Shown: positions 47,103-64,000 of the stretch, in pieces
Layout of the letters: every line of letters begins with the position of its first letter
Numbering within the stretch: the stretch's first letter is position 1
Virus record (IMG/VR): IMGVR_UViG_3300025141_012665
Location: 1-64,000 of that record
Direction: 5' to 3' (one strand)
DNA from: a virus
Length of the DNA stretch: 64,000 bases
Notes under the pieces: model-generated
What the model saw: the letters and a program-made list of their open reading frames with translations, nothing else
Databases searched by the model: none
Told to the model about the DNA's origin: nothing
Made by a program: the position numbers and the translations under genes

Positions 47103-47134
47103 TAAATATATGTTACTGGCGATGGGATGTGTTA

Positions 47135-47452: not shown

Positions 47453-47459
47453 GCTTTTT

Positions 47460-49052: not shown

Positions 49053-49053
49053 T

Positions 49054-49908
49054 TTAAACTTTCCTCCTGAGTTTCTTTCTGATGGGTGCCTCTGATTGGG
49101 TCACAATCTTGTTGGCGTCACCCATCATCACATTAATTCTATCACACCTCTTTCTCAACATATGCATGGCGTGAACCTCTAAGCTAGCAGATTGATCTGT
49201 TCCCCACATATCATGAGATAGAGTTATGTGTCTTTCTATAACTTGGGCCCCTAGCGCCACTGCAACCACTGTTGGTTGCAGATCGCTTTCGTGGCCAGAG
49301 TACCCAACTACACACCCATATCTTTCCTTAATCATTGGAATCAGATTTAAGTTTAACTCTTCAAGAGGAGTTGGATAGCTTGAGTTCGTATGCATCAATA
49401 CAGGCTTGTGATGTCCTTGCAATAATAGATCTACGGCATGATCGACCTCTTCCAGAGTCGACATTCCAGTCGAAGCGATGACCGGAACCCCAGATTTAAC
49501 TACCTCTTTCAGCAACTCATCGTCCGTCAACATGGCTGAGGGGATCTTTATAAACGGAGACCCTCTTTCCAATAGGAAATTTAGGCTATCGATATCCCAC
49601 GCAGACGCAGACCAATCAATAGGTTTCTCTGATGCATATTCGGAAATATATTTATAATCGGGGCCGGAGAGTTCTATCCTGTGTTTATACTCTATGTATG
49701 TCATCTCGCCCCACGGAGTCTTTCTCATGATTCCTTTCTGGTGTTCTGGTACACAGACATCCGGGTTTCTTTTTTGAAATTTAGCGCAGTCCCATCCACA
49801 CGCGTGCACGGCATCCATCAGCTTCTTGGCCACCTGCAAATCTCCGTTATGATTGATCCCAATTTCTCCTATAAAATAGGGGACTTTTAAGTTCTCAAAA
49901 TCTACCAT
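49054..49908 (-). CDS. neuB: NeuB-family nonulosonate synthase lacking the SAF domain
   Basis: NeuB-type enzymes condense phosphoenolpyruvate with a hexosamine-type sugar to give sialic, legionaminic or pseudaminic acid. The barrel motifs are clear: GEIGINHNGD near residues 14-23, 'CAKFQKR', 'FIKIPSAML', 'VIASTGMS', 'MHTNSSYPTP', 'GYSGHE', 'IERHIT'. The usual C-terminal antifreeze-like SAF domain (about 60 residues) is absent: the protein ends at 284 aa where that domain should begin, so it is a barrel-only form. Start: ATG 49908 has GGAGG nine bases ahead; an upstream ATG at 49917 sits against that site and is less likely. It follows the SDR gene and an aminotransferase, as in nonulosonate clusters. 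Confidence 0.85.
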   Translation of the reverse strand: MVDFENLKVPYFIGEIGINHNGDLQVAKKLMDAVHACGWDCAKFQKRNPDVCVPEHQKGIMRKTPWGEMTYIEYKHRIELSGPDYKYISEYASEKPIDWSASAWDIDSLNFLLERGSPFIKIPSAMLTDDELLKEVVKSGVPVIASTGMSTLEEVDHAVDLLLQGHHKPVLMHTNSSYPTPLEELNLNLIPMIKERYGCVVGYSGHESDLQPTVVAVALGAQVIERHITLSHDMWGTDQSASLEVHAMHMLRKRCDRINVMMGDANKIVTQSEAPIRKKLRRKV

Positions 49909-50579
49909 GAGGTCCATCCTCCATCTATCTTAAATTCGGCGCCCGTGGCATACGAAGACTTGTCTGATATAAGATATTCAACTATTCCATTTATTTCTTC
50001 TGCTTTCATCATTCTTCCGATAGGAGTATAGAAGGAATATTTATCTTTAAATTCTGACGATTGGTTGTGTCCTACTCCGCCTGGCACTATGGTATTTACT
50101 CTAATATTTGGCGCCAGATGGGTTGCCAAGTGTTTTGAAAGCATCAATACGCCGGCTTTTGATACGCTATATCCTATATGTTTTTCACCATTATAAATAT
50201 TCTTGTTGGGCGACACAATACCATATGTAGAAGAAAAGTTAACTATACTGCCGCCTTTCGTATTGTATCTCGCAAACTCTCTACAAACAGAAAAGAGAGA
50301 AACTAAATTAACTTTCATATATAATTCAAAAGATTCTAGGCTTATATCCATTAGCGTTGCTTCAGAATTTCCACCTTCTATGTGATGATTCAATGCAAAC
50401 AAGTTAATCAGTGCATCCGCAGGATTATATCTAAAAAATTCCCCAACAAACTCCTCGTTCGTCAAATCGTGGCCCAATTGTAAATCACAGCGAATAATTT
50501 CATTCCCAGCCGACTCCAAGTATCTTGCAATCTCTGTACCTATTAATCCCTCTGAGCCTGTGATGATTATCTTTTTCAT
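49902..50579 (-). CDS. Short-chain dehydrogenase/reductase near NeuB (PtmA-like)
   Basis: This is a classical SDR of 225 residues: nucleotide-binding GSEGLIG (8-14), Ser of the active site in 'NFSSTYG', and Y-x3-K in GYSVSKAG (catalytic Tyr and Lys), with 'IRVNTIVPGG' following. SDRs of this group are found next to NeuB and aminotransferase genes in legionaminic-acid and flagellin-glycan clusters (PtmA). It could reduce a keto-sugar or act on the nonulosonic acid. It overlaps the DegT gene by four bases upstream and the NeuB gene by seven downstream. The substrate is inferred only from the neighbours. Confidence 0.85.
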   Translation of the reverse strand: MKKIIITGSEGLIGTEIARYLESAGNEIIRCDLQLGHDLTNEEFVGEFFRYNPADALINLFALNHHIEGGNSEATLMDISLESFELYMKVNLVSLFSVCREFARYNTKGGSIVNFSSTYGIVSPNKNIYNGEKHIGYSVSKAGVLMLSKHLATHLAPNIRVNTIVPGGVGHNQSSEFKDKYSFYTPIGRMMKAEEINGIVEYLISDKSSYATGAEFKIDGGWTSW

Positions 50580-51802
50580 GGTGTCGTCTTGTTTTTGAAA
50601 TTTAATATTGTCTTTCGCAGAGCCTCTGCTTTGACCTTTGCCAAGCTCAGGTCGCGATAGTTATTCTTAAACTGCATTATCTTTGATTGAACTTCTTCGG
50701 CGATTGGGCATATGCCCTTCTCATATCTGATTTTTTCATAGATGCTCGGATTAACCTTTACAAAATTTCTTTCAGACATAACGGGCTCAAGGTATGGAAC
50801 GCTCCATGCTGCATAAATTCCATCTCCACCGTTCTTTATATATTCTTTTCGAAACTCTTGCCAGCTAACTCCTATTGACTTTTCTCCTTCGTACTTTACA
50901 GCAAAAGTCCAACAAGAATTAGTTCTATCGTCTCCGGTTTTCTGAGGTCTCAGATAATCACATCCTGTTTCCGTTATAACATTCGAGAACAACTTCGAGG
51001 CTTTAACTCGAAGCTGTATCAGGTTTTCAAGATTTTCAAGTTGCGCGGAGGCAATGGCAGCGCTGAATTCTGACATCCTATAATTCCAGCCGATCTCGTC
51101 ATGTCTCTTATATTCAGGATCCTGAAAGTCATCAAGATTAAGTTTTGTTCTGCCTGTGGTGGCGGTTGAATTTTTAAATCCATGATTGCTTATTTTTCTT
51201 GCAATTGCCGCGTAATGCTCATTGTTTGTAGTAATGGCGCCGCCTTCACCGCAAGACATATGTTTAGAATTTTCAAAACTATAGCTTGCCAGCGCGCCGA
51301 ATGTCCCGACTAGTCTTCCCCTATATTCACTCATGAAACATTCGGCATTGTCTTCGATTACAGGAATATTATGCTCATTTGCTATTTCCATAATTTCGTC
51401 CATATCACACGGCAAACCATATAGGGGCACCACTATGATTGCCTTTGTCTTGGAAGTTATTTTTCTTTTCAAATCTGCCGGATCAATATTAAATGTCTCT
51501 GGATCTATGTCAGCATATACAGGTATGGCGCCTGCATGTATTGTAGCGCTCGTGTCCATTATTACAGTAAGTGCGGGGGATATAACCTCATCTCCGGGCT
51601 TCACCCCGACTGCTACCAATGCCGCATGCAGAGTTGATGTTCCGGAATTCATAGTAACTGCATACTCTGATCTAAACTTTTTACAAATTGATTCCTCTAG
51701 AAGCTGATTCCAGGTACCAGAAGTAGAAGACCAGTGCTCAGACTCTAGTACTTTCTTTAAATATTCAAGCTCGTTTCCAAAGTATTTGGGGGGATTTTTC
51801 AT
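50576..51802 (-). CDS. PLP-dependent sugar aminotransferase, DegT/DnrJ/EryC1/StrS family
   Basis: This 408-residue enzyme transfers an amino group to a keto-sugar. Family marks are 'NSGTSTLHAALVAVG', 'VISPALTVIMDTSATI', 'VIEDNAECF' and the PLP lysine at about K180 in SFENSKHMSCGEGG, which is followed by 'EIGWNYRMSEFSAAIA'. The longest frame begins at 51835, but ATG 51802 has AAGGAG about five bases upstream and overlaps the methyltransferase stop by just four bases, so I prefer it. In its place before the SDR and NeuB genes it probably supplies the amino-sugar needed for a nonulosonic acid. A normal-length family member, unlike the short copy at 58403-58993. Confidence 0.9.
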   Translation of the reverse strand: MKNPPKYFGNELEYLKKVLESEHWSSTSGTWNQLLEESICKKFRSEYAVTMNSGTSTLHAALVAVGVKPGDEVISPALTVIMDTSATIHAGAIPVYADIDPETFNIDPADLKRKITSKTKAIIVVPLYGLPCDMDEIMEIANEHNIPVIEDNAECFMSEYRGRLVGTFGALASYSFENSKHMSCGEGGAITTNNEHYAAIARKISNHGFKNSTATTGRTKLNLDDFQDPEYKRHDEIGWNYRMSEFSAAIASAQLENLENLIQLRVKASKLFSNVITETGCDYLRPQKTGDDRTNSCWTFAVKYEGEKSIGVSWQEFRKEYIKNGGDGIYAAWSVPYLEPVMSERNFVKVNPSIYEKIRYEKGICPIAEEVQSKIMQFKNNYRDLSLAKVKAEALRKTILNFKNKTTP

Positions 51803-52542
51803 GCCGACTCCTTTTCGAAATACAAAAAGCCCCAAGGAAGATGCAACACATCCGTAAACATCAGTCTCTTGTTAGAGTCGCTTTGTATTGTGTATGTGCC
51901 CCTACCATCATGAACATTGGAGAGATCAATATCAATTTCAAATTTTCTCTTAAACTTTATATGAAATCCATACCGGGATGCAATATGTTCCATTTTCTTG
52001 ATCGAGTGTATATTATACGGATATGCCTTATTGTAGCGTTCATCTCGAATTGTTATGTCATATTCAAGCGCCCTATTGGTAAAAAGAGAAAACATAAAGA
52101 CCCCCTTCTTTGCGTTTTGAAAACACTTCTCACAAAAACTTTCGCCTTTATCAAAATCTAAAAAAGAAAGCACCTGTGTTGAGCCGACTATATCATATTT
52201 TTCATTAAGATCTAAAACATTTAAATGTTTAAATGTCGTATTTTTTACTTCAAAATGACTATGTGCTTTTCTTGCTTCCTCTAAGTAATGCTTATTTATA
52301 TCAATGCCCACAAAACTGAAAGATGGATACTGATTGGCCAAGTACATAAGGTTGGCGCCGGCGGAGCACCCTACATCAAGGACACTTAAGCTTAGATTTT
52401 TTTCATCACCCAAAGATTCATCCAAACAATCAATAATAAATTTAGTGCTTCGATACATTTCATTATATTGGCGAGCATTGTAGAGATCCATCCCCTTGCA
52501 TTGGGATCCCCACACAGCATTTGAGCCTCTAATCATGTCCAT
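51799..52542 (-). CDS. SAM-dependent class I methyltransferase (247 aa)
   Basis: A Rossmann-type methyltransferase: motif I is 'SVLDVGCSAGANLMYLA', followed by 'FVGIDINKHYLEEARK' and 'EKYDIVGSTQVLSFLD' for motifs II and IV. The N-terminus (MDMIRGSNAVWGSQCKGMDL) resembles sugar-modifying methyltransferases in polysaccharide clusters. It probably O- or N-methylates an activated sugar or the finished glycan. AGAGG lies six bases before ATG. It overlaps the cytidylyltransferase gene by 14 bases and the aminotransferase by four, so it belongs to the same operon. The substrate is unknown. Confidence 0.87.
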   Translation of the reverse strand: MDMIRGSNAVWGSQCKGMDLYNARQYNEMYRSTKFIIDCLDESLGDEKNLSLSVLDVGCSAGANLMYLANQYPSFSFVGIDINKHYLEEARKAHSHFEVKNTTFKHLNVLDLNEKYDIVGSTQVLSFLDFDKGESFCEKCFQNAKKGVFMFSLFTNRALEYDITIRDERYNKAYPYNIHSIKKMEHIASRYGFHIKFKRKFEIDIDLSNVHDGRGTYTIQSDSNKRLMFTDVLHLPWGFLYFEKESA

Positions 52543-53302
52543 TTTTCGCCTCTTTAAGTTTAAGCTCGGTTTTGGAAATTTGATTATTTTTCCACCTTTC
52601 TTCTAGATAAAAATTAATATTAACCAATTCTTTGTTTTTGTCTAAGAATGTCAATATGTCTCGTGTATCAAATGCAGGGAGATCTATTTGTTCGACAACC
52701 TTTGAGAAGAAGTTAAAATCATCTTTATAGTCTAGTGTCATACGAATATCACTTCTCCGATAGGCGGCAGGAATATTTTTAAGCAAAGAAAGCTCAAACA
52801 ACCCGGTCTCTGTAAAATATACATACATCATTTCGGTGTCGTTGGTATCTTTTATTTCGCACACCTTTCTTAGTGCAGTGGTTTTTATACCATATGTAAA
52901 TGAACCACACACCACTTCATTACTGTGTATGAAATCGCATTGTTCATCATCAAACTGCTTAAACGCCACATCCATTAATTCATGGGAACAAAACAGATCA
53001 TCGCCATCAGCAGTTACAAAAAACTCTATATTATAACGATCACATGTGTCGAGCCAGCGCTGTAGCTTGTCTTCTTCGCTTCCCCTAAAAAAAGCAATAT
53101 TATTATTTGTTGCTATTTCGCACAACATATCATCCTCTGTCAATTTAGTCGTGCATAAAATGATCATATCGGCTAAATTAGATTTTTTGGCTTGATCGAT
53201 AACATACTCAATGGTGTGCTTTCCTTTAATCTTTTTATAGGACTTATTGGGCAACCTAGAAGAGTTGCTTCTAACTGTTATTAAAATTGCTTTTTTGCCC
53301 AC
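52529..53302 (-). CDS. SpsF/NeuA-like cytidylyltransferase (257 aa)
   Basis: Proteins of this group activate sugars or acids as CMP/NDP derivatives. The N-terminus 'ILITVRSNSSRLPNKSYKKI' is the expected nucleotide-binding start (R-x3-SRLPxK), and 'FFVTADGDDLFCS' contains the DxDD metal motif. The length agrees with SpsF-type cytidylyltransferases rather than with longer NeuA proteins. Together with the NeuB-family gene downstream it may make a CMP-nonulosonic acid. Start is GTG (53300-53302), served by a perfect sigma-70 promoter at 53327-53355. It overlaps the methyltransferase start by 14 bases. Confidence 0.82.
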   Translation of the reverse strand: MGKKAILITVRSNSSRLPNKSYKKIKGKHTIEYVIDQAKKSNLADMIILCTTKLTEDDMLCEIATNNNIAFFRGSEEDKLQRWLDTCDRYNIEFFVTADGDDLFCSHELMDVAFKQFDDEQCDFIHSNEVVCGSFTYGIKTTALRKVCEIKDTNDTEMMYVYFTETGLFELSLLKNIPAAYRRSDIRMTLDYKDDFNFFSKVVEQIDLPAFDTRDILTFLDKNKELVNINFYLEERWKNNQISKTELKLKEAKNGHD

Positions 53303-53326
53303 TTGAACTCACTTTGAATATTAATT

Positions 53327-54198: not shown

Positions 54199-54202
54199 AT
54201 TT

Positions 54203-55153
54203 TCACCAAATAAAGTTTTGTTTGTAGTGTTTAACGATGTTGACAATTTCTTCATTAAACTTCTTTTTAGGCTCCCAACCTAGGCTCCGGAGCTTTCTAT
54301 CGTTTAGTGCGTATCGGACATCTTGCCCTTCGCGGTAGGCATTAAAATCAACATATTGCTCCCAGTTGTCGTCTGTTCCAAAATATGCCTTAATAATCTT
54401 CCTCACGGTTTCAGAATTCGGCTGCTCAAAGCCGCCGGCAACATTATAGATTTCATTAACATTACCAGACTCAATAACAGTCAAAACCGCTTCGGCTGTA
54501 TCGTCTGCATGCAACCAATTGCGAATTGGCTTTCCTTCGTCATGAAGTTTAATCTTCTTTCCTCTAGTAAGGTTTTTCACGGCAAGTGGTATAAGTTTTT
54601 CTGGATATTGTCCTATTCCATAATTATTTGTTGGTCTTAACATAATATATTCAACACCATAAGTTCGTGACCATGCATTGATCAGCATATCGCCGGCCGC
54701 TTTTGCTGCGGAATATGGGTTACTTGGCTTCAAGACATCGGCCTCTGAGTGTGCTCCAATCTCGATATCGCCATAAACCTCGTCGGTACTAATATGAATC
54801 AAAATTGGTTTATCATTAATGTTGGTAGGCTTATGCCTTATTAAATCCAGAAGGTTTTTTACACCCAGTATGTTGCTGTTGATGAAGTCGCCGCTGTTTA
54901 TTATACTATTCCCAACATGAGATTCTGCCGCGAAATTAACAATGTAATCGCAGTCATATAAGTGTTCAATGTCTTTAATATCTATCTTTTTAAAACAAAA
55001 ATTTGGATAGGCCTGAAACTCTTCTAACAAGGAAATGTCTGCTGCATATGTACACTTATCTACGCCATAAACTTTCCAACCTCGCTCCAAGCATTTTCTC
55101 GTAAAATAAGAACCTATGAAGCCTAGGCATCCCGTAACATAAACCAATTTCAT
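54203..55153 (-). CDS. rmlB: NDP-glucose 4,6-dehydratase, RmlB-like
   Basis: A short-chain dehydratase of 316 residues that makes a 4-keto-6-deoxy sugar from an NDP-hexose. The NAD loop is 'VTGCLGFIGSYF', the signature 'HISTDEVYGDIEIG' holds the Thr/Asp/Glu catalytic triad, and YSAAK carries Tyr and Lys; 'RPTNNYGIGQYPEKLIPLAV' is also typical. The opening (VDKCTYAADISLLEE) resembles dTDP-glucose dehydratases more than CDP-glucose dehydratase (RfbG), so the nucleotide is uncertain. It is coupled to RfbH by four bases (ATGA); the two could act in sequence to a 3,6-dideoxy-4-ketosugar. Slightly shorter than RmlB (about 350 aa). Confidence 0.88.
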   Translation of the reverse strand: MKLVYVTGCLGFIGSYFTRKCLERGWKVYGVDKCTYAADISLLEEFQAYPNFCFKKIDIKDIEHLYDCDYIVNFAAESHVGNSIINSGDFINSNILGVKNLLDLIRHKPTNINDKPILIHISTDEVYGDIEIGAHSEADVLKPSNPYSAAKAAGDMLINAWSRTYGVEYIMLRPTNNYGIGQYPEKLIPLAVKNLTRGKKIKLHDEGKPIRNWLHADDTAEAVLTVIESGNVNEIYNVAGGFEQPNSETVRKIIKAYFGTDDNWEQYVDFNAYREGQDVRYALNDRKLRSLGWEPKKKFNEEIVNIVKHYKQNFIW

Positions 55154-56481
55154 TTATTTCTCCTAAAGAAATCGTCAACTACTTTTTTAACATAGTCAAG
55201 CTTCTCCTCTGTTAGGCCGGCAAAAGTACCTAGAAAGAAGGAATTCGAAGCCGATAAACTAGCTATTGGAAATGCCTTTTTTAGATCTCCATATTCCCCG
55301 GCCAAATGATGGTAAGCAGGGTGAGCAAGAATATTTCCTGAAAAATAAGAACGAGTCTGGATTCGATTATTCTCCAAATGCGACACAATGTCCTGACGGG
55401 TAAAGTAAGCAGACTCTTTAATTGTAAGTAAATATGCAAACCAGCACGGATCAGATTTTTCTGTTGGCTCCGGAAGGTGAAAGTGTTCCTTGTATGGTCT
55501 AAATATTTCTTGCAATATTTCAAAATTTCTTCGTCGGGCTGCATCCAGATCTGGAAGCTTGCATAATTGTTCTAACCCTATAGCCGCTTGTAATTCCAAA
55601 GGTTTAAGATTGTAGCCTATTTCATCGTAAACATAGCGGTGATCATAAATTGCATCTGGCAAGCCCGGCAGCCAGTTTCTAAACCTATTTCCGCACGCAG
55701 TGGAAGACACTGTGCATGTTGTTTTTGCCGAATTGCAATAACATGCTCGGCCCCAATCACGAATGCTGGATATGGCTTTTCGAGCCGCAGGGTCATCAGT
55801 TGCAACAAACCCACCTTCTCCCATAGTCATGTGGTGTGCGGGATAAAAGGAGCATGTCGAGATGTGCCCAAATGATCCAAGCTTCTTTCCATCATAATAA
55901 GAGCCGAGTGCGTCACAAGAGTCCTCGATAAAGATAAGGTCATATTCTCGCACAATAGACATTAATCTTTCCATGTCTGGCGGGTTCCCAAAAACATGAG
56001 CAAACATAATTCCTCGAATACTTGGATCCTTTTTTAGCTCTTCTTCTACTTGGTCTAAATCTAAATTTAAATCTGGGAGCGTAACATCAACGAAGACAGG
56101 CTCGAATCCATTTTGAATAATTGGATTGAGGGTGGTGGGAAAACACGACACGGGGGTGATTATTTTAGATCCCTCCGGAAAGTTAAATGCATTCTTAGAT
56201 CGTAGAGAGGAGACAGCAAGAAGGTTAGCAGAACTTCCAGAATTTGTTAAAGAGCCGCGTTTCTTTCCAAGATAAGATGGAAATGCCTTCTCAAATTCGC
56301 GGGCTTTGTCGCCGAACACTAGCCAACTATCCAACAAGGATTCAACTGCTGCACAATATTCGTTCTCGTCAAAGATATGTCCAGAGTATGAAACCCAGTC
56401 TTTGTCCGGATTCCAGGCAATATCATTCTTTTTTTTCGCATATTGCTTCACTAGCTTCAAAATATCTTGTAGCTCACTCAT
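55150..56481 (-). CDS. rfbH: RfbH/E1-type PMP and [2Fe-2S]-dependent 3-dehydratase
   Basis: Homologue of CDP-4-keto-6-deoxy-D-glucose-3-dehydrase (E1), which removes the C3 hydroxyl in 3,6-dideoxyhexose synthesis. It has the DegT fold, but the PLP lysine is replaced by histidine (H217 in FYPAHHMTMGEGG), the hallmark of E1. The iron-sulfur cysteines are visible: C189 (EDSC), then C247, C249 and C256, giving C-x57-C-x1-C-x6-C; the E1 motif is C-x57-C-x1-C-x7-C. E1 normally needs the reductase E3 for electrons; no E3-like gene is in the window, although a two-[4Fe-4S] protein lies 5 kb upstream in the same operon. Full length (443 aa). Confidence 0.9.
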   Translation of the reverse strand: MSELQDILKLVKQYAKKKNDIAWNPDKDWVSYSGHIFDENEYCAAVESLLDSWLVFGDKAREFEKAFPSYLGKKRGSLTNSGSSANLLAVSSLRSKNAFNFPEGSKIITPVSCFPTTLNPIIQNGFEPVFVDVTLPDLNLDLDQVEEELKKDPSIRGIMFAHVFGNPPDMERLMSIVREYDLIFIEDSCDALGSYYDGKKLGSFGHISTCSFYPAHHMTMGEGGFVATDDPAARKAISSIRDWGRACYCNSAKTTCTVSSTACGNRFRNWLPGLPDAIYDHRYVYDEIGYNLKPLELQAAIGLEQLCKLPDLDAARRRNFEILQEIFRPYKEHFHLPEPTEKSDPCWFAYLLTIKESAYFTRQDIVSHLENNRIQTRSYFSGNILAHPAYHHLAGEYGDLKKAFPIASLSASNSFFLGTFAGLTEEKLDYVKKVVDDFFRRNK

Positions 56482-57424
56482 CTTTTAAATAATCCCACTC
56501 GTAGCTGTTTCTGTGTGCTGACCATGGTATATTGGTGTCCTTATACTTTTCTAGAATCTCTTCTCTTTTTTCCGGTATCACATAATCAGAATGCGCGTGA
56601 AATCCCCATTTTTCATGAAATAATTTATGCGCTTCTTCCGAAAATCTTAATTCAAGGCGCCGGCGAAAAGTATTCTTTGGATTCGGATGTGTCAAAATCA
56701 CCGAAGGAACCCAAATATTTATAAGATTATTTTTAAGGGATTCTAGTGCCCAATCTTCGTCGATGAGCATGGTATATGGCCCAAAATACGCACATTGGCC
56801 AATTTTCTTCATTGCTTCGGAGCTTACTACCATAAAATCCCATGGGCCATGGCACCTAACAGCGCGATCTGGAAAGTCCATTAGGTGTTTATTTTCGTTC
56901 GTTAATCGAGCGCCTTTGCTAAAATTGTGGCATTCATACACAAAGGGAAAATTTTTCATGTCGGAATGGAAGCCATTTCCAAAAGAATTTGGCATAGGGC
57001 CCTTGGGTAAGTTATAATAATTATTATTGGTGTACACTATCCAGCCAACTTCTTCTTCGCGACCCTCTATCTCCTCTAGTGTCTTACCAAAAAAATTAGG
57101 AGTGTGCATTATGATATCATCATGAGAAATGAGAACATACTTTGTTGTATCCCTATACCTTTCAAAAAACTCGTTGTAATCAGTTGCCCACGAATCTTTA
57201 GTGTATACCACTTCCAGCAACGAGCCATCCTTAATAAATTGCTTTAAATTTTGATCGCTAAATATTTGCTTTACAAAGGTCTCGATCTTTGGATCGTCAA
57301 CAACAATGTAAAACTTATAATCAAAATCTCCTATATTTTTTGCAATTGAATAAATTGTTTCAATTAGATTTGTCTTAAAAACATTAGGGCCGGCCGAGGC
57401 GATAAATACAGTGAGATCAGTCAT
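56474..57424 (-). CDS. GT-A-type glycosyltransferase (316 aa)
   Basis: A soluble, probably GT2-like enzyme. The N-terminus 'LTVFIASAGPNVFKTNLIET' and 'YKFYIVVDDPKIETF' give the nucleotide-binding fold; 'YVLISHDDIIMHTPNFFG' holds a DD metal motif in the expected spot, and 'GPYTMLIDEDWALESLKNN' a conserved acidic ED-W site. It would transfer an activated sugar to a growing glycan. There is no membrane segment. It overlaps the GMD gene by eight bases and RfbH by eight, so it is inside the operon. It is the only clear glycosyltransferase in the window, so other transfer steps must rely on genes outside it or on the host. Confidence 0.78.
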   Translation of the reverse strand: MTDLTVFIASAGPNVFKTNLIETIYSIAKNIGDFDYKFYIVVDDPKIETFVKQIFSDQNLKQFIKDGSLLEVVYTKDSWATDYNEFFERYRDTTKYVLISHDDIIMHTPNFFGKTLEEIEGREEEVGWIVYTNNNYYNLPKGPMPNSFGNGFHSDMKNFPFVYECHNFSKGARLTNENKHLMDFPDRAVRCHGPWDFMVVSSEAMKKIGQCAYFGPYTMLIDEDWALESLKNNLINIWVPSVILTHPNPKNTFRRRLELRFSEEAHKLFHEKWGFHAHSDYVIPEKREEILEKYKDTNIPWSAHRNSYEWDYLKDE

Positions 57425-58406
57425 CCACTCCCTCTTTGTTCAGCTTTAGCATCCAACTATCGATCATGTCGTCCATTAAAGTTTCGAAGGTAAACTCAGG
57501 CTGCCATCCAAGAACTTCGCGGGTTCTGGTAGAATCTCCTTTCAAATATTTCAACTCTTCGGGCCTCATATATATCGGGTTCTGTGTTACATGATTTCTA
57601 TAGTCCATACCCAGTTTTTCAAAAACATATTTACATAAATCTCGTACCGAGTTGGTTTCCCCTGTGGCTACTATCCACTCATCAGGGGTTTTATGGTTTA
57701 TAATCATATGCATTGCTTTAACATAATCCCTGGAGTGTCCCCAGTCCCTATAGGAATCTAAATTTCCCAATTCAAGCTTGTCTCGTATGCCCATCTTGAT
57801 TTCAACTGCGGCTTTCACTACTTTGTTGGTTACAAAATTTGTGCCGCGGCGAGGTGATTCATGATTAAATAAAACACCATTGCAAGCATGTAAACTGTAG
57901 GCATGCCTGTAGTGTCTTACTAGATTGAAAGCCAAAAGTTTAGCACACCCATATGGGCTAACTGGCTTCATGGGCGTCGACAGTCGCTGGGCGCCGTCGT
58001 CGTCTACTGAGTTCCCGAACATTTCTGAGGAACTGGCTTGGTAGAATTTGGCTTTCGGCGCGAACAACCTATAAGCCTCAAGAAGATTCAACACCGCCAT
58101 GCCATTTGTCTGAATAGTGAACGCCGGCATATCGAAACTGATCCGGACATGGCTCATGGCGGCTAGATTATATATTTCATCTGGCTGTACATCTAGCATA
58201 ATTTTAGTCAATGAGGTATTGTCCAGCATATCACCATAGTATGTGTGAATTTTATCACCTAAGTGAGCTATTCTACTGTCTTGGTTCTCTGCTACAGAGG
58301 ACCTTCGTATGATCCCGTGAACTTCATATCCCTGCTCTAGCAAATATTCCGCCAAATAACTTCCATCTTGTCCGCTAATGCCGCTAATTAATGCTCTCTT
58401 TTTCAT
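57417..58406 (-). CDS. gmd: GDP-mannose 4,6-dehydratase (second copy)
   Basis: Another full GMD (329 aa): SGISGQDG nucleotide loop (8-15), 'NLAAMSHVRISFDMP', '[11 protein letters not shown]', Y152-x3-K156, '[10 protein letters not shown]', 'NLDSYRDWGHSRDYVKAMH'. It differs clearly from the copy at 43883-44860 (for example SGISGQDG against [18 protein letters not shown] against [10 protein letters not shown]). The two are unlikely to be a recent duplication; they may have arrived with different sugar blocks. It is coupled by 4-8 base overlaps to its neighbours. Product: GDP-4-keto-6-deoxymannose. Confidence 0.93.
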   Translation of the reverse strand: MKKRALISGISGQDGSYLAEYLLEQGYEVHGIIRRSSVAENQDSRIAHLGDKIHTYYGDMLDNTSLTKIMLDVQPDEIYNLAAMSHVRISFDMPAFTIQTNGMAVLNLLEAYRLFAPKAKFYQASSSEMFGNSVDDDGAQRLSTPMKPVSPYGCAKLLAFNLVRHYRHAYSLHACNGVLFNHESPRRGTNFVTNKVVKAAVEIKMGIRDKLELGNLDSYRDWGHSRDYVKAMHMIINHKTPDEWIVATGETNSVRDLCKYVFEKLGMDYRNHVTQNPIYMRPEELKYLKGDSTRTREVLGWQPEFTFETLMDDMIDSWMLKLNKEGVDD

Positions 58407-58993
58407 TTAAAAATCTCCATCTGTGTTAAATCTGGCCAATCTGATATCACCCACTGCCTGGGGCTATTCTCGATTGCATCTCCAAGCTTTTGAAGGCCAA
58501 GCTGGGCTATCTCTGGCGTCATATAATAATGATACCCTATTGTATCGATATTTTGTCCTCTCCACGGCGCATCAGGCCGGCGACCATCATAGGACATTTT
58601 TTTTAAAAGCATTGCAGCCTCTTTGTTATCGGTAAGAATCATGCCGCCTCTGCCTAAGCTCAAATGCTTTCTGAATTGGAAACTCAAGCACATAAATGTG
58701 TCTGGTATATATGAATTCTTTCTCCACAATACCGCAGCATCTATAATATTTGTGCCCCCCAAATAATAAAAATCGGTCCAATCCTCATTGCGCCATTCTA
58801 AATCAATATTTAATTTATGCGCTAAAAAGGGTACCGATATATATGTGCGTTTCGGGACGCTGTACCGCTCTACTTGTTGAAGTCGCAGACACAACTCAAT
58901 AGCATGAGTGCAGCAATCCACAGCAACGGCATAGGGAGAGCCAAAAAAGCTAGCTACGCTGGCTTCAAACTTCTCTATTGCTTCAAAGCTCAT
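58403..58993 (-). CDS. Shortened DegT-like aminotransferase-family protein (196 aa)
   Basis: The DegT fold is recognisable: 'FEASVASFFGSPYAVAVDCC' for the N-terminal part, 'YISVPFLAHKLNIDLEWRNE', 'IIDAAVLWRKNSYIPDT' and the PLP-lysine region 'SFQFRKHLSLGRGGMILTDN' with lysine K109. 'YHYYMTPEIAQLGLQKLGDA' matches the 'GxNxxM-x3-AAxGLxQL' segment. Normal family members are 370-430 residues; here the middle is compact and the C-terminal domain is missing. All expected active-site landmarks of the N-terminal domain remain, so this may be a functional mini form rather than decay. It overlaps the methyltransferase and GMD genes by four bases each, which argues against a pseudogene. The role is uncertain. 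Confidence 0.72.
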   Translation of the reverse strand: MSFEAIEKFEASVASFFGSPYAVAVDCCTHAIELCLRLQQVERYSVPKRTYISVPFLAHKLNIDLEWRNEDWTDFYYLGGTNIIDAAVLWRKNSYIPDTFMCLSFQFRKHLSLGRGGMILTDNKEAAMLLKKMSYDGRRPDAPWRGQNIDTIGYHYYMTPEIAQLGLQKLGDAIENSPRQWVISDWPDLTQMEIFK

Positions 58994-59526
58994 TTAACAC
59001 ACTCTACATTCAAACTGATAAGTGTTCCTTTTTCTTTATCCATGTGAGGAATATAAGCCTGTGAATGATCATCACAATGTGCATGATCTGTTTTGCGCCA
59101 GTCATATAGCCTTATATCACGAAAACCACACTGCGTCAGCAGAGTACTTAAGCTTTTATAGTCGTATGAGGTCTTGTGATATATTATTTTATCTTCCATC
59201 TTCATCTTCCCGTACAATGGACCTAGCAGGTTTTCCAGCTTTATAATCTTTTCGGTATATAATCTGGCCATGGATTCGAAGTCCGGCACTGCTACCCTTA
59301 GCGTGCCTCCCTTTTTTAAGACTCTGCGCCACTCTTCTAACACTCCTGTTATTTCTGTTCGATCAAAATATTCTATTACATGAGAAGAATAAATTAAATC
59401 AACAGTGTTATCAGCAAAATCTAACGCGGTTATGGATTTGTAATCCAAATGGTCATAGTCTCCGCCATCGATATGAACCCACGAAGGGCCAAAATTTCTC
59501 CAGCCGCATGCCATATTTATTTTCAC
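58990..59526 (-). CDS. SAM-dependent methyltransferase, small COG4627-like type (178 aa)
   Basis: A short class I methyltransferase: 'KINMACGWRNFGPSWVHIDG' is the motif-I loop with the glycine pattern seen in this group, followed by 'LIYSSHVIEYFDRTEITGVL' and 'EEWRRVLKKGGTLRVAVPDF', typical of these small enzymes in polysaccharide clusters. It is 16 bases after the cupin gene and overlaps the next gene by four. It probably methylates a sugar or amino-sugar. The substrate is not visible. Confidence 0.82.
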   Translation of the reverse strand: MKINMACGWRNFGPSWVHIDGGDYDHLDYKSITALDFADNTVDLIYSSHVIEYFDRTEITGVLEEWRRVLKKGGTLRVAVPDFESMARLYTEKIIKLENLLGPLYGKMKMEDKIIYHKTSYDYKSLSTLLTQCGFRDIRLYDWRKTDHAHCDDHSQAYIPHMDKEKGTLISLNVECVK

Positions 59527-59542
59527 AATCCATATCCCATTC

Positions 59543-59956
59543 TTAAATTTCTTCCTTGTCTACATCGCGGCCATAATAGGGCCCAGTCTTATATTCATAC
59601 ACTGCTGTTCCTTCTTCCATAGAAAGATAGTTGTGACCACCCCTAAATGTAATAGAAATGTCGCCAGGGTTTAAAACCACTTCTTCTATTATTGCGTCAT
59701 CAATATCGTACAGTGTGGCTTTAATTTGGCCACTTATTACCGCCCACGATTCCTGACAAATGTCCGATGTTCTTATTTGGGTCTTATGTTTGTGCGGTAT
59801 GAATGTCTTTCCTTCCGGCATTTCGAAACACGCAACTTGCAAATACTGCTCTGGTGCGCAGATATCCACTCTTTTTTGCGTAATATCTTCTCTTCTGTTG
59901 ATTATATGTAACAACAAATCTTTATCAACTCTAGAATAAATTTCTCTCACCGGCAC
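59543..59956 (-). CDS. Cupin-fold sugar-modifying protein (137 aa)
   Basis: A single cupin barrel: the first conserved part is 'FIPHKHKTQIRTSD' with two His, then 'ESWAVISGQIKATLYD', and the second part contains 'ITFRGGHNYLSMEEGTAVYE' with one His and a Glu, so a metal site could form. Small cupins of this type occur next to sugar-nucleotide genes, where they are thought to epimerise or isomerise a ketosugar or to act as WbuC-like proteins. It overlaps the NAD-epimerase gene by ten bases. A promoter (60071-60099) inside that gene would feed it. Confidence 0.75.
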   Translation of the reverse strand: MPVREIYSRVDKDLLLHIINRREDITQKRVDICAPEQYLQVACFEMPEGKTFIPHKHKTQIRTSDICQESWAVISGQIKATLYDIDDAIIEEVVLNPGDISITFRGGHNYLSMEEGTAVYEYKTGPYYGRDVDKEEI

Positions 59957-60801
59957 TCCAGGTCTTTAATCATTTGTTCGATGCCCTTGTTTAGTCCATC
60001 AGTTTTTATGCCCAAACTAAGAAATCTTCGCGGGTCACCGCTATAAGACAGGGCTTTACTTCTTTCCTTTAATATAACACCATTCGAAGCGCCTGTCAAG
60101 TTTAAAATTAGATAAGCTATATCTGATAAGTTAACCTTATTCTTATAACAAAGATTTAGATCCTTATACAAACAGCGATCTGGATTCTTTATTAAGAAGT
60201 CGACTGTTTTTAGGACATCCCCAATCGAAATAAAGTCCATTTCCATATCTTTATGTATGAGGATCGGCAGACCCTCCATCAGCCTGTTAATAGAGTTCTT
60301 CACAAACCTAGATGACAGCTCATGAGGCCCGAAACAACCGAAAAGCCTTAAATTTATAATATTGTTATGTTTATTTATTTCTCTAGTAATTAAATTCTTA
60401 GACTGGCCATAATAATCAGACGGCCACCTATTGTAGATCTCGTCCTCTCTCATGTTTTCAATTTGTCTACTTCTATCAAATTCTGCTCCGGAACCAAAAT
60501 TTATCATCAACTTATATTGCCCTGAATGGCGGGAGAGGTTTCGGAACATTAACATATTATCAATAAAATCATCAAGCGTGTCCGGATTTTCTCGACGACC
60601 CCCCTTTACGGCCGTATGTAAAACAATATCGATATTATTGTTAAGAAAGAATTCTTCTACGGCTTTCTCGCTTGTAACATCTAATTGTTGTCTTCCAAGC
60701 GAATATACTTTATGTTCCCCGCCGGAATAATGTTCTTTAAAGTGCTTCCCCAAGAAGCCATTGGCGCCGGTGATCAAAATGTTCAAAGCTTTTGTTTCCA
60801 A
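59947..60801 (-). CDS. NAD-dependent epimerase/reductase (284 aa)
   Basis: An extended SDR with the loop 'ILITGANGFLGKHF' (9-22), 'VLHTAVKGGRRENPD', and the later 'YYGQSKNLI' carrying YxxxK. The C-terminal half has 'LRLFGCFGPHELSSRF', in the place of the RLFN segment of sugar epimerases. It probably reduces or epimerises a ketosugar (RmlD/WcaG-like role). It overlaps the HAD gene by 19 bases upstream and the cupin by ten downstream. An internal sigma-70 promoter is embedded in its 3' half. In a branched-sugar pathway it could be the final 4-keto-reductase. Confidence 0.85.
   Translation of the reverse strand: METKALNILITGANGFLGKHFKEHYSGGEHKVYSLGRQQLDVTSEKAVEEFFLNNNIDIVLHTAVKGGRRENPDTLDDFIDNMLMFRNLSRHSGQYKLMINFGSGAEFDRSRQIENMREDEIYNRWPSDYYGQSKNLITREINKHNNIINLRLFGCFGPHELSSRFVKNSINRLMEGLPILIHKDMEMDFISIGDVLKTVDFLIKNPDRCLYKDLNLCYKNKVNLSDIAYLILNLTGASNGVILKERSKALSYSGDPRRFLSLGIKTDGLNKGIEQMIKDLECR
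60071..60099 (-). promoter_or_regulatory. Sigma-70-type promoter inside the epimerase gene
   Basis: TTGACA (60094-60099) and TATATT (60071-60076) are exactly 17 nt apart on the minus strand, with an extended TGT. It lies wholly inside the epimerase coding sequence, about 110 bases before the cupin ATG, and would drive the cupin and following genes. Being inside a gene, it may be a chance match, but the layout is the same as the five other sites. Confidence 0.65.
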
Positions 60802-61139
60802 CTAGAGACATTCAAGGCCTTATCATCTAGATATATGTCCGCCACAGGCTTTGGGCTTGGGCCGGACTTTTTTATAAATTCTGGGATGTTCTCGTTGATC
60901 GCATCGAATTCCAATCCTTTTTCTTTACACCAATTCACCGCATCAGTTAAACATGGATAATCTTTATTGTCTCCTCTGCAAGTATATAATATTAATTTAT
61001 GGCCATCTACTCTAAGCTCTTTAAGTCTATCCATTAATTCAATCTGATCTTCTGTTTGTTTTCCAATCCCTGGAAAAGCATATTCACACAGAGTACCATC
61101 GAAATCTACCGCGATAGTTAATCTCTTTTTATTCATCAC
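60783..61139 (-). CDS. HAD-like phosphatase (118 aa)
   Basis: Nucleophile motif VDFDGTL (D12, D14), then 'HKLILYTCRGDN' for motif II and 'ADIYLDDKALN' for the acidic motif III: the compact cap-less HAD fold. It resembles small phosphatases such as the BT0820 type found in sugar clusters and may remove a phosphate from an intermediate. Similar in kind to the 105-aa gene at 47135-47452. The start overlaps the end of the LdpA-like gene by 11 bases. Confidence 0.8.
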   Translation of the reverse strand: MMNKKRLTIAVDFDGTLCEYAFPGIGKQTEDQIELMDRLKELRVDGHKLILYTCRGDNKDYPCLTDAVNWCKEKGLEFDAINENIPEFIKKSGPSPKPVADIYLDDKALNVSSWKQKL

Positions 61140-62268
61140 TAAACTCTCTTATATTTATGTCTACTAATTCTTTTGCCGCCAAGTAGGCCAAGCGTATCTT
61201 TGTTTTATTGCTCCAAAAATCCAAGCTCTCTGTATGTTTTTCAACCACTTTTCTTGCGTATGTTCCCACGGCGACACCGTTGCAGCGCACTCCAGTCTTA
61301 TTTGCAAGTTCCTTAGTTAACTGATTCGTTCCACCTGATAAAATTATATACACATTTTTATTATGACCATGAGATCGATATTTCAATTTTCCTCTTTTAT
61401 CTCTTTTCATATTAAACCTTTTATTAACTACATCGGCACAGGCAACCGCCTGTAGGGTCGTATTTAGATCACCTTCCCCACCACTCATTGGATAGCCATC
61501 AGCCTGAATTGCGAACCGGTTGCCGGATATTTTTCTTACGCGTTCGATTCTCTTCTCTAGGTTCAGATTTCCTAAATTAAGTCGATCTAAGCACATGAAA
61601 TTCATATTATGTGGGTTAATTTCATTTATTAACGACCACTCCCTCATAGTAATATCATCATCCTGAACGCTAGCATGCAATTCAAACATCTCTGCGCCAG
61701 CAGCAAGACATTCTGGAAGCAACTCCCGAAGTTCGAACTCACTATTTCTGTAAGAAATGATATCACTTTTTGGACATATATTGCTGCATTTTCCGCACCC
61801 GATACATAGCTCCTTAGTCACTATCTCTTTAGACTGGTCTTGCAACTCGAAGGTGGCGCCAAGCTTCTTAAATGCTTCTAAATTATCTTTGATGTGAAAA
61901 TCATAAGGTATGGCATCAGTGGGGCACACAGGAGCACACAGGCCACAAGAAATACACTTAAAAGGATCTATATAAGATTTTCTAACATGGTGGTCGCCCG
62001 GCATGCCGAGACTAACCATTATATAAGGCCTCTCCTTCGGTGGGGCATCAAACTCCTCTAATAGCTCAAAAGCCCTATCTACCCCCTCTGTGGCTGCGGT
62101 GATGACATCCAAATTTGCCGACACATCCAATATTTTTGCGCCTGCTAGCGTATATACTAGCGCAAGACTACGAACCATAGACGCATCTTCGTTTCCGGCG
62201 CCACAGATCATTTTAAAGCACTTCTCTTCATTCAGTAAGCGCTGAATATCTTGTAGCCTGTCGCTCAA
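61129..62268 (-). CDS. Two-[4Fe-4S] protein resembling cyanobacterial LdpA
   Basis: Two ferredoxin-type clusters are visible: C105-x2-C108-x2-C111-x3-C115-P and C155-x2-C158-x2-C161-x3-C165-P. Outside them the sequence recalls the light-dependent-period protein LdpA of cyanobacteria: 'FKMICGAGNEDASMVRSLAL', 'VYTLAGAKILDVSANLDVI', 'RPYIMVSLG', 'AIQADGYPMSGGEGD' (253-267), 'YIILSGGTNQLTKELA' and 'GVAVGTYARKVV'. LdpA is described as a redox-sensing iron-sulfur protein that tunes the circadian clock; the function of a phage copy is unknown. Here it overlaps the aldolase by four bases, inside the sugar operon, so electron donation to a sugar enzyme such as RfbH, or redox sensing, are the main ideas. 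The LdpA similarity is from memory and needs a profile search; a ferredoxin/barrel protein of another family is possible. Confidence 0.7.
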   Translation of the reverse strand: MSDRLQDIQRLLNEEKCFKMICGAGNEDASMVRSLALVYTLAGAKILDVSANLDVITAATEGVDRAFELLEEFDAPPKERPYIMVSLGMPGDHHVRKSYIDPFKCISCGLCAPVCPTDAIPYDFHIKDNLEAFKKLGATFELQDQSKEIVTKELCIGCGKCSNICPKSDIISYRNSEFELRELLPECLAAGAEMFELHASVQDDDITMREWSLINEINPHNMNFMCLDRLNLGNLNLEKRIERVRKISGNRFAIQADGYPMSGGEGDLNTTLQAVACADVVNKRFNMKRDKRGKLKYRSHGHNKNVYIILSGGTNQLTKELANKTGVRCNGVAVGTYARKVVEKHTESLDFWSNKTKIRLAYLAAKELVDINIREFSDE

Positions 62269-63089
62269 CCGATTCTACCTTTTAAAGTGTTCGCTCTCTC
62301 TAAATAGGAATTACCTACACTAGTATAATTCAGAGCCTTAAAGTTTAGCCAATCGATTTCGAAAGTCAGAACAGATTTAATGGTATTATGAAGGTCGCCA
62401 ATATTCGAATCATTTAACCCAACAACAACATTCCTTGTTTCGATCTTATCAAGAAGATTCTTGTCGTACAAATGTTTTATAAAATCAATACTGCTGGACG
62501 AAATATTCCCGCCCATGGTCGTCTTTAAATTTTTATTTTTAGCCCTCGTCAGAATATCCTCTACTATACGGCTTATTTTTTCGCTGTCGGCATGAGATTT
62601 GTCTAATCCATAAGATTTTGTCAAATCAGAACGGCCGACAATAATTCCGTCTAATTTCTCTGCGTGTACAGAATTTAAAATACTATCCAGATTATCATAT
62701 GAATTACGGCTCTCACACAGGAAATATAATTCAATATCTCCTATAAATGTTGTTGCATCAATAAACTTTCTCAAAGCAAAATCCGTCTCAATCATGGGCG
62801 CCACTATAGAGTTGATTCCCATGCTAACACAATTATTTATATCTGTAATTGCCTCGCAGCCACCAATTTTAATATACATCATCAATCCACACATTTCAGT
62901 TATTCTTCTCATTGTTATAACATCATCTAATATGGCGCCTTCGTCTTCAAAGGACTGCTTTATTCCAACAACATTGCTTTCCGTGCTGAGAATCGAAAGC
63001 TTATTGGCTAGTGCCTGTGCTGTTTGCTTCTCTAGATCGTCATAGTCGTACCTTTTTCCTTGCCACGCTCCTGTTATCTTCTTGTCCAT
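62265..63089 (-). CDS. HpcH/HpaI-type aldolase (274 aa)
   Basis: A TIM-barrel of the HpcH/HpaI-CitE group, which makes or breaks C-C bonds using pyruvate- or acetyl-type donors. Family marks are 'MYIKIGGCEAITDINNCVSM', 'INSIVAPMIETDFALRKFID', 'YFLCESRNSYDNLDSIL' and 'KLDGIIVGRSDLTKSYG', with an Arg-Ser-Asp-Leu near the metal site. The start follows the TPP gene after three bases and the stop overlaps the LdpA-like start by four (ATGA), so the three are made together. In a sugar operon it could add carbons to a sugar; the substrate is unknown. Confidence 0.78.
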   Translation of the reverse strand: MDKKITGAWQGKRYDYDDLEKQTAQALANKLSILSTESNVVGIKQSFEDEGAILDDVITMRRITEMCGLMMYIKIGGCEAITDINNCVSMGINSIVAPMIETDFALRKFIDATTFIGDIELYFLCESRNSYDNLDSILNSVHAEKLDGIIVGRSDLTKSYGLDKSHADSEKISRIVEDILTRAKNKNLKTTMGGNISSSSIDFIKHLYDKNLLDKIETRNVVVGLNDSNIGDLHNTIKSVLTFEIDWLNFKALNYTSVGNSYLERANTLKGRIG

Positions 63090-63092
63090 TTT

Positions 63093-64000
63093 TTAAATCC
63101 TCCTCTTAGTAGTGTGTGTATCAATGATCATTTCTTTCTCGAATTCCTCCTTTGAGAGAAAAGGCGACATGTTCTCTAAAGGTTGAGATGTCAGACTACC
63201 ATCTTCTTCTTGTCTAGATGCGGCCGTTGGGAATATTTTTTCTTCAGGGGGGCAAATAATCTCGCACATACATTGACCACTGGAGTTTATAATTTTAGGC
63301 AACAAATTCTCAAGCTCTCGCATGTTGGTTATCTTATAAAACTTTATCCCATATGCAGCAGCGATCTTTTCACATTCAGGAAATGAAATTCCGGATTCCG
63401 GATCGACACCAGAGAACCTATTATCAAAATACTTAATTTGAGTATTTCTTATCGATAAATATCCACCGTTGTTGAGAATAAAAATTTTAATAGGCATCTT
63501 GTTGTGGACTATTGTTTGAAGTTCCTGTATGTTGAACTGAAACGAACCCTCGCCAGTGATGGCTAACATATTTACATCCGGATCGGCTAAATGTGCACCT
63601 ATCGATGCGGGTATGGCGAAACCCATTTCTCCTTGGGCTGCCGGCAATATAAGTCGATTATCTGTCATCGACTGAGCCATTACATAATAAGCAGATCCGG
63701 CATCCGCAACAACGGCAGCATCTTGACCCTTAGTTTCTTCTGAAAGCTTTTTCGAGAAAGAATACATGTTTAGTTTATCCATATCTGGCCTATCAAACAC
63801 TGGCCAGATTTTCTTCCAGTGGGCGGCCTTATTTAGCCAATAATTTGAAGTCTCGTAATCAATGGACATATTTTCCAATATGAATTGTTTGGCATCCATT
63901 TCTATAATGGAATCAATTTTTATTGTATCCTTAAGGTGCTCACCACCATCAATATCTACAGCAATCTTTTTGGCTTCTCTGGCGAAAAGATCATATCTGA
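63093..64000 (-). CDS. Acetolactate-synthase-like TPP enzyme (C-terminal part; continues past the window)
   Basis: The visible 301 codons form the middle and the TPP-binding domain of an IlvB/acetolactate-synthase-family enzyme. The frame has no stop through 64000 and the last visible codons read AREAKKIAVDIDGGEH, a typical middle-domain segment, so the ATG at 63897-63899 is internal and the gene begins beyond the window. The TPP motif is 'ITGEGSFQFNIQELQTIV' ending in 'ILNNGGY' (a GDG-x26-NN-type site, with GEG for GDG). 'LPAAQGEMGFAIPASIG' is also typical. TPP enzymes of this family add two-carbon units; YerE does this to a 3,6-dideoxy-4-ketosugar in yersiniose synthesis. RfbH, the enzyme that makes such a ketosugar, is in the same operon. 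Confidence 0.88.
   Translation of the reverse strand, partial: RYDLFAREAKKIAVDIDGGEHLKDTIKIDSIIEMDAKQFILENMSIDYETSNYWLNKAAHWKKIWPVFDRPDMDKLNMYSFSKKLSEETKGQDAAVVADAGSAYYVMAQSMTDNRLILPAAQGEMGFAIPASIGAHLADPDVNMLAITGEGSFQFNIQELQTIVHNKMPIKIFILNNGGYLSIRNTQIKYFDNRFSGVDPESGISFPECEKIAAAYGIKFYKITNMRELENLLPKIINSSGQCMCEIICPPEEKIFPTAASRQEEDGSLTSQPLENMSPFLSKEEFEKEMIIDTHTTKRRI

What the first reader, a model, noticed from the sequence alone, without database searches (positions are those of the whole stretch)
54203..64000. Possible branched-chain 3,6-dideoxysugar pathway in a phage: TPP enzyme + aldolase + Fe-S protein + RfbH + 4,6-dehydratase
The operon holds a 4,6-dehydratase, an E1/RfbH 3-dehydratase with the His-for-Lys change and the C-x57-C-x1-C cysteines, and an acetolactate-synthase-like TPP enzyme. 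In bacteria this set makes yersiniose: E1 produces the 3,6-dideoxy-4-ketosugar, YerE (TPP) adds two carbons from pyruvate, and a reductase finishes. An aldolase, a reductase-like epimerase and a two-[4Fe-4S] protein complete the group. A phage making its own branched sugar, perhaps for virion, host-surface or DNA modification, would be new to me. The E3 reductase and the nucleotidyltransferase are missing from the window.
Basis: partly seen in the sequence, partly recalled or inferred. Interest (0 to 1): 0.82.

Follow-up and report, generated by a model that had tools for sequence, protein, structure and literature searches.

The report
Phage cassette for a branched sugar
This virus of bacteria, and dozens of uncultured relatives, carry a set of genes that looks able to build an unusual sugar in which an extra carbon chain is welded onto an oxygen-poor sugar ring, chemistry known until now from bacteria, and what the virus uses it for can now be tested.

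Summary
The window lies in a 74.6-kb phage fragment. Beyond 64000 the thiamine (ThDP) enzyme is complete (587 aa); no nucleotidyltransferase or E3 follows. It is not acetolactate synthase: it falls in the clade of YerE-like JanthE (AU test against ALS p about 1e-45; the ALS acceptor Arg and Trp are replaced). RfbH has the E1 histidine and all four Fe-S cysteines. The dehydratase is RmlB-like (dTDP), not CDP-type. The core (RmlB-like, RfbH, JanthE-like, aldolase, SDR) recurs in dozens of IMG/VR contigs, several with T4-type capsid and terminase genes. No INPHARED phage (50,697 records) has the aldolase, a full LdpA-like match or a close relative of the ThDP enzyme. Bacterial JanthE-type loci pair the enzyme with an aldolase or NeuB-like synthase in 14 of 14 cases, but use RfbF-RfbG (CDP). 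So a branched 3,6-dideoxysugar is supported; 'yersiniose' is not: the partner enzymes point to a donor longer than pyruvate. The Fe-S protein is LdpA-like, follows the aldolase, and often occurs without RfbH, so it is probably not RfbH's donor. The phage loci nearly lack multi-span membrane genes, hinting at a cytoplasmic acceptor such as a virion protein; unproven.

The parts
63093..64000 (-). YerE/JanthE-like ThDP enzyme (C-terminal part; gene continues to record position 64856, 587 aa)
   Evidence: Pfam TPP N/M/C; best PDB hit JanthE 8rph 376.6 bits vs ALS 244; tree and AU test
62265..63089 (-). Divergent HpcH/HpaI-type pyruvate aldolase (ALD), proposed maker of the alpha-keto acid donor
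   Evidence: PF03328 E 7e-8; AF2 model pLDDT 89 matches HpaI/HpcH class II pyruvate aldolases, TM about 0.57; likely metal ligands E126 and D155 invariant
61129..62268 (-). LdpA-like protein, TIM-barrel-like fold with an inserted 2x[4Fe-4S] ferredoxin domain; function unknown
   Evidence: NCBIfam CircClkLdpA 141 bits (cut-off 450), PF25160, PF12617; eight ferredoxin Cys invariant in 19 homologues; fold
60783..61139 (-). Small HAD-type phosphatase, linked to the ALD-LdpA pair
   Evidence: DxDGT motif; phrog_1238; found with LdpA in 22 of 22 loci
59947..60801 (-). SDR reductase/epimerase with YxxxK, proposed to reduce the branch ketone (YerF-like role)
   Evidence: PF01370; an SDR accompanies the TPP gene in most viral loci
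55150..56481 (-). RfbH/E1-type NDP-4-keto-6-deoxyhexose 3-dehydratase (PMP + [2Fe-2S])
   Evidence: NF011936 468.9 bits; PDB 3bcx 323 bits; H216, C189, C247, C249, C263 invariant
54203..55153 (-). RmlB-like dTDP-glucose 4,6-dehydratase
   Evidence: TIGR01181 301 bits (cut-off 365) vs CDP-type TIGR02622 80 bits; all 10 PDB hits below 1e-30 are dTDP-glucose 4,6-dehydratases
57417..58406 (-). GMD-like dehydratase; probably another sugar's pathway
   Evidence: PF16363; gmd 372.6 bits, cut-off 415
58403..58993 (-). Short (196 aa) DegT-fold protein; probably pairs with the GMD-like gene
   Evidence: PF01041; co-occurs with GMD and cupin in L069/L070
59543..59956 (-). WbuC-like cupin, outside the core cassette
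   Evidence: TIGR04366 36.5 bits, cut-off 42
43883..53302 (-). Rest of the glycan island: GMD, two sulfotransferase-like genes, epimerase, radical SAM/B12, NeuB, SDR, DegT, methyltransferase, cytidylyltransferase

Best explanation
The phage carries a bacterial-type pathway for a nucleotide-linked, C4-branched 3,6-dideoxyhexose. Proposed steps: (1) the RmlB-like enzyme turns a nucleotide-glucose, most likely host dTDP-glucose, into the 4-keto-6-deoxy sugar; (2) RfbH, with PMP and its [2Fe-2S] cluster, removes the C3 hydroxyl, with electrons probably from a host reductase; (3) the HpcH/HpaI-type aldolase, perhaps with the LdpA-like and HAD proteins, makes an alpha-keto acid; (4) the JanthE-like ThDP enzyme decarboxylates that keto acid and joins the acyl unit to the C4 ketone, giving a tertiary alcohol with a branch; (5) the SDR reduces the branch ketone. 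Glycosyltransferases in the same island then attach the sugar, plausibly to a cytoplasmic acceptor such as a virion protein, or to a host glycan exported by host machinery. Shown here: gene identities, active-site residues, phylogeny, recurrence of the cassette and its carriage by phages. Inferred from families: the reactions. Weakly inferred: donor identity, nucleotide, acceptor.
For: ThDP enzyme lies in the JanthE/YerE clade, ALS excluded. RfbH residues complete. In TPP-seeded viral loci RfbH or its in-place substitute is found in 23 of 26 and RmlB-like in 21 of 26 (my count). The substitute is a His-type E1 homologue without Fe-S cysteines, seen in 8 loci, which should keep the 3-deoxygenation chemistry. 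Alpha-keto-acid-making enzymes of three families (HpcH/HpaI, NeuB, DAHP/KDO8P-synthase type) lie 1 to 3 genes from TPP; in bacteria 14 of 14 JanthE-type loci have one, while two YerE-type loci have none. The YerE-like ErwE prefers 4-hydroxy-2-oxo acids, the products such aldolases make (PMC12247030). Viral carriage: gp23 and/or terminase in several cassette records; SbcC, primase, baseplate wedge, sigma and PhoH on the window's own record.
Against: No nucleotidyltransferase, E3 or ferredoxin reductase on the record (the fragment is incomplete). ALD lacks the usual HpaI catalytic His motif, so its exact reaction is uncertain. Nine of 26 TPP-seeded viral loci show no recognised keto-acid enzyme nearby; some are cut or diverged. 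No product, activity or expression is known.
Confidence: 0.75

Rival explanations
1. True yersiniose pathway: pyruvate is the donor, a two-carbon unit is added, CDP chemistry; the aldolase belongs to another pathway.
For: RfbH and a YerE-like enzyme are present; JanthE accepts pyruvate.
Against: The aldolase/NeuB/DAHPS slot is tied to JanthE-type enzymes in viruses and bacteria and absent from the two YerE-type loci seen; dehydratase is dTDP-type, RfbF/RfbG absent; window enzyme is in the JanthE, not the YerE, branch.
Confidence: 0.15
2. The ThDP enzyme is an acetolactate synthase-type auxiliary metabolic gene boosting host branched-chain amino acids, and its place beside sugar genes is incidental.
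For: NCBIfam hits are ALS models; a virome paper lists viral ilvB as an AMG (PMC8226683).
Against: All ALS model scores are far below cut-off; ALS Arg and Trp replaced, AU p 9.5e-46; linkage to RmlB/RfbH across dozens of contigs.
Confidence: 0.03
3. The LdpA-like Fe-S protein is the dedicated electron donor for RfbH and stands in for E3.
For: Two [4Fe-4S] sites, same operon, no E3 on the record.
Against: LdpA-like gene found with ALD in 21 and HAD in 22 of 22 loci but with RfbH in only 11; 26 RfbH loci lack it; 10 LdpA/ALD records have no RfbH and no TPP, though they are fragments. L006 has a flavin reductase beside it.
Confidence: 0.2
4. The sugar is placed on the host surface (LPS or capsule), as suggested for the LPS genes of cyanophages such as P-SSM2 (from memory), to change the cell surface or block superinfection.
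For: Homologous bacterial clusters serve LPS (PMC12247030); the island has several glycosyltransferases.
Against: No flippase, polymerase or other multi-span membrane gene in the island; 0.23 vs 7.8 such ORFs per 100 kb in bacterial cassette loci (crude predictor); but host exporters could serve.
Confidence: 0.35

Closest known systems
JanthE and bacterial JanthE-type loci (RfbF-RfbG-RfbH-ThDP-aldolase/NeuB-SDR)
   Same: ThDP enzyme of the same clade, RfbH, neighbouring aldolase or NeuB-like gene, SDR; no 342-aa E3-like gene nearby
   Different: Phages use an RmlB-like dehydratase and lack RfbF/RfbG; in the window's lineage ALD-LdpA-HAD is added; almost no membrane export genes; carried on phage genomes
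Yersiniose A pathway (DdhABCD + YerE + YerF)
   Same: 4,6-dehydration, RfbH/E1 3-deoxygenation, YerE-like ThDP carboligation, SDR reduction
   Different: CDP enzymes and E3 absent; ThDP enzyme in a different branch; an aldolase nearby instead of plain pyruvate use
Erwiniose (ErwE) and caryophyllose (MMAR_2332) pathways
   Same: YerE-like enzymes that prefer hydroxylated alpha-keto acids (PMC12247030)
   Different: Bacterial; not compared by sequence here
LPS-like gene islands of T4-like cyanophages; RfbH in Synechococcus phages
   Same: Phage-borne sugar genes; RfbH homologues at about 38% identity
   Different: No JanthE-like ThDP enzyme, ALD or full LdpA-like gene found in any INPHARED record
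LdpA of cyanobacteria
   Same: Domain architecture, 141 bits to the LdpA model
   Different: Far below the equivalog cut-off of 450; sugar-gene context; no clock role implied

Membership tests
YerE-like ThDP ligases (JanthE type) | Falls with JanthE/YerE and apart from ALS in a tree | tested here: met
YerE-like ThDP ligases (JanthE type) | Catalytic Glu and ThDP motif present | tested here: met
   E47; GEG...NN instead of GDG (JanthE itself has CDG)
YerE-like ThDP ligases (JanthE type) | Joins a decarboxylated keto acid to a ketone | not testable with these tools
   needs an assay
Acetolactate synthase | Acceptor Arg (DDR) and Trp (QW) positions | tested here: not met
   P and T in the window protein; R and W (or Q) in ALS
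Acetolactate synthase | Score above equivalog cut-off | tested here: not met
   346.8 vs 976 and 345.8 vs 538
RfbH/E1 3-dehydratase | His in place of PLP Lys and C-x57-C-x1-C...C cluster ligands | tested here: met
RfbH/E1 3-dehydratase | Score above RfbH equivalog cut-off | tested here: met
   468.9 vs 423
Yersiniose pathway | CDP-glucose synthesis genes (RfbF, RfbG) | tested here: not met
   absent from the record and from viral cassette loci except bacteria-like L063
Yersiniose pathway | E3/DdhD reductase | tested here: not met
   none on the record or in viral cassette loci; a different flavin reductase in L006; records are fragments
dTDP-glucose 4,6-dehydratase (RmlB) | Closest to dTDP enzymes rather than CDP ones | tested here: met
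   301 vs 80 bits; PDB hits; below the RmlB equivalog cut-off of 365
HpcH/HpaI pyruvate aldolase | Fold and metal-binding Glu/Asp | tested here: met
HpcH/HpaI pyruvate aldolase | Catalytic Asp-His dyad and pyruvate-binding Arg | tested here: inconclusive
   by eye the region reads SFEDEG and the Arg site Lys; no structure-based alignment made
LdpA | Score above LdpA equivalog cut-off | tested here: not met
   141 vs 450

The most novel reading that the evidence does not exclude
Phages make a fused double sugar: a dTDP-linked 3,6-dideoxyhexose whose C4 carries a carbon-carbon-bonded chain taken from a second, aldolase- or NeuB/KDO-synthase-made 2-keto-3-deoxy acid, and use it to decorate their own virions.
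Probability: 0.2. Interest if true: 0.88.

Novelty: new variant of a known kind. Interest (0 to 1): 0.7.

Why it matters
Enzymologists of YerE-like ligases have said that viruses might hold surprising relatives (PMC12247030); here is a large, diverse viral set with a defined gene context. It reassigns at least this kind of viral 'ilvB' from amino-acid metabolism to branched-sugar synthesis. It proposes what the puzzling sugar islands of T4-like phages make, and gives a minimal set of about five soluble enzymes whose product can be assayed directly. One large marine AMG survey excluded contigs with LPS islands on purpose (PMC11360552), so the class has been easy to overlook.

Tried and rejected
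ALS reading of the TPP enzyme: rejected by tree, AU test and residues. LdpA-like protein as RfbH-specific donor: disfavoured by co-occurrence. Search for nucleotidyltransferases in 34 cassette-type records: 5 with hits, and none RfbF-like beside a viral cassette except bacteria-like L063. Structure search of the LdpA-like model: generic TIM-barrel matches only, no functional clue. Plasmid and INPHARED tblastn with the TPP enzyme: only about 22-33% identical hits, the annotated ones nearly all ALS-type, many apparently host DNA in phage records. Literature search for phage plus yersiniose or LdpA: nothing relevant in the titles listed. Note on bias: loci L040-L084 were fetched with the aldolase, so only the TPP-seeded viral loci and the bacterial loci count as tests of the aldolase link.
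Full report
What is there. The window is positions 1-64000 of a 74,646-base linear IMG/VR record. I took the remaining 10.6 kb. The block from about 43.9 to 70.8 kb, all on the minus strand with many genes overlapping by a few bases, is a sugar-gene island. It is flanked by a late-sigma-like gene and phage structural genes on one side and an exonuclease and PhoH on the other; SbcC, primase and a T4-type baseplate wedge are on the same record. This is a phage, and an incomplete one: the terminase and gp23 models used did not match it.

The ThDP enzyme is complete at record position 63093-64856. RfbH passes the curated RfbH cut-off and keeps the E1 histidine and four cluster cysteines, which never vary in 29 viral homologues. 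The dehydratase at 54203 is RmlB-like: the dTDP model gives 301 bits and the CDP model 80, and all ten solved-structure hits below 1e-30 are dTDP enzymes. The 'aldolase' is a divergent HpcH/HpaI protein; its predicted structure (mean pLDDT 89) matches HpaI-type class II pyruvate aldolases and it keeps the apparent metal ligands, though not the usual catalytic His region. The Fe-S protein is LdpA-like, a TIM-barrel-like protein with an inserted two-cluster ferredoxin domain.

ThDP enzyme. Against solved structures it scores 377 bits to JanthE, a YerE-like ligase, and about 244 to acetolactate synthases. A profile of 30 viral relatives gives JanthE 675, 5ahk 481 (which I recall to be YerE of Pseudomonas protegens) and ALS at most 427. 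In a maximum-likelihood tree the window enzyme sits with five other viral sequences (100/100) inside the JanthE-containing clade. Forcing it in with ALS is rejected, AU p 9.5e-46, and the ALS acceptor residues Arg and Trp are Pro and Thr.

The cassette recurs. Scanning IMG/VR with the ThDP enzyme and the aldolase returned dozens of contigs. Among TPP-seeded, non-duplicate viral loci, 21 of 26 have the RmlB-like gene and 23 of 26 have RfbH or a substitute (my count). The substitute is striking: in eight loci, including the near relative L040, RfbH is replaced by a roughly 380-aa E1 homologue that keeps the histidine but has lost the Fe-S cysteines. Replacing one 3-dehydratase by another supports the 3-deoxygenation step. 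Several cassette records also carry T4-type gp23 and/or terminase: L013, L038 (210 kb), L076, L079 (167 kb), L083 (328 kb), L084.

The donor. In 17 of the 26 TPP-seeded viral loci a gene for an alpha-keto-acid-making enzyme lies next to or near the ThDP gene, and the slot is filled by three different families: HpcH/HpaI, NeuB, and DAHP/KDO8P-synthase type (loci fetched with the aldolase are excluded from this count). In bacteria, 9 of 9 Bacteroidota and 5 of 5 Chloroflexota JanthE-type loci have an HpaI-like or NeuB-like neighbour, whereas two Bacteroidota YerE-type loci have none and carry an E3-like gene instead. Since ErwE, a characterised YerE-like enzyme, prefers 4-hydroxy-2-oxo acids (PMC12247030), I infer that the neighbour makes the donor and that the branch is longer than yersiniose's two carbons. 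This is inference, not a measurement.

Nucleotide and electrons. The bacterial JanthE-type loci with enough flanking sequence use RfbF and RfbG (CDP-glucose). The viral ones do not, apart from L063, which groups with bacteria. No sugar nucleotidyltransferase was found even in cassette records of 142 to 210 kb, so I infer that host dTDP-glucose is the starting point. No E3 is on the record; the JanthE-type bacterial loci also lack the 342-aa E3-like gene seen in YerE-type loci. The LdpA-like gene is found with ALD (21 of 22) and HAD (22 of 22) but with RfbH in only 11; 26 RfbH loci lack it, and ten LdpA/ALD-type records contain neither a full RfbH nor the ThDP enzyme. So it probably serves the aldolase branch rather than RfbH.

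What the phage uses it for. The island has glycosyltransferases and an MptE-like protein but no multi-span membrane protein by a simple hydropathy scan. Over 46 viral loci there were 2 such ORFs in 876 kb, against 10 in 128 kb of bacterial cassette loci. That fits a cytoplasmic acceptor such as a virion protein, or a sugar handed to host exporters; I cannot decide between them.

Novelty. No INPHARED record has the aldolase or an LdpA-like full-length match, and TPP hits there are at most about 32% identical, the annotated ones nearly all ALS-type. RfbH homologues at 37-39% do occur in a few deposited phages. Viral 'ilvB' has been listed as an auxiliary metabolic gene together with rfbG, gmd and fcl (PMC8226683), without a branched-sugar reading in the passages I read. 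I therefore call it a new variant of a known kind: bacterial-type chemistry, rebuilt around an RmlB-type dehydratase and widespread in uncultured phages.

Noticed in passing
L011:16962-20037; L076; L084: GMD + ColD-type 3-dehydratase (HH...IEGG) + Fcl/ColC-like genes together: a probable GDP-colitose pathway on the same phage contigs.
   Followed up: partly
L011:4686-5834, L040:12390-13550 and six others: E1 homologues of about 380 aa with the catalytic His but without Fe-S cysteines (motif SHxITAGG), replacing RfbH; possibly an Fe-S-free 3-dehydratase class.
   Followed up: partly
L041, L043, L045, L051, L052, L055, L057, L059: ALD-LdpA-HAD gene trio in phage contigs without RfbH or TPP; function unexplained.
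   Followed up: partly
window 49054-54255: NeuB, SDR, DegT (Lys type), methyltransferase, cytidylyltransferase and MptE-like gene: looks like a second, nonulosonic-acid-type pathway with a Maf-like transferase.
   Followed up: partly
window 44857-45480 and 46398-47102: Two sulfotransferase-like genes (the second by its SYPRSGSNWL motif only), suggesting sulfated glycans.
   Followed up: no
window 58403-58993: A DegT-fold protein of only 196 aa with the Lys position kept (FRKHLSLGRGG); also in L069/L070 beside GMD.
   Followed up: no
L006:893-2970 (also L012, parts in L045, L047): Shikimate-dehydrogenase N-domain gene, an unassigned 324-aa protein and a HAD gene travelling together in phage contigs.
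   Followed up: no
L074, L080, L083 and others, between aldolase and TPP: AroB (3-dehydroquinate synthase)-like (by eye) and SDR genes, sometimes on the opposite strand; also in bacterial loci L111-L116.
   Followed up: no
INPHARED records such as OR847010, OR848815: Short 'phage' records matching bacterial acetolactate synthase, probably host DNA contamination.
   Followed up: no
window 17493-27782 and 31580-38869: Very large proteins of 3429 and 2429 aa in the structural region, not studied.
   Followed up: no
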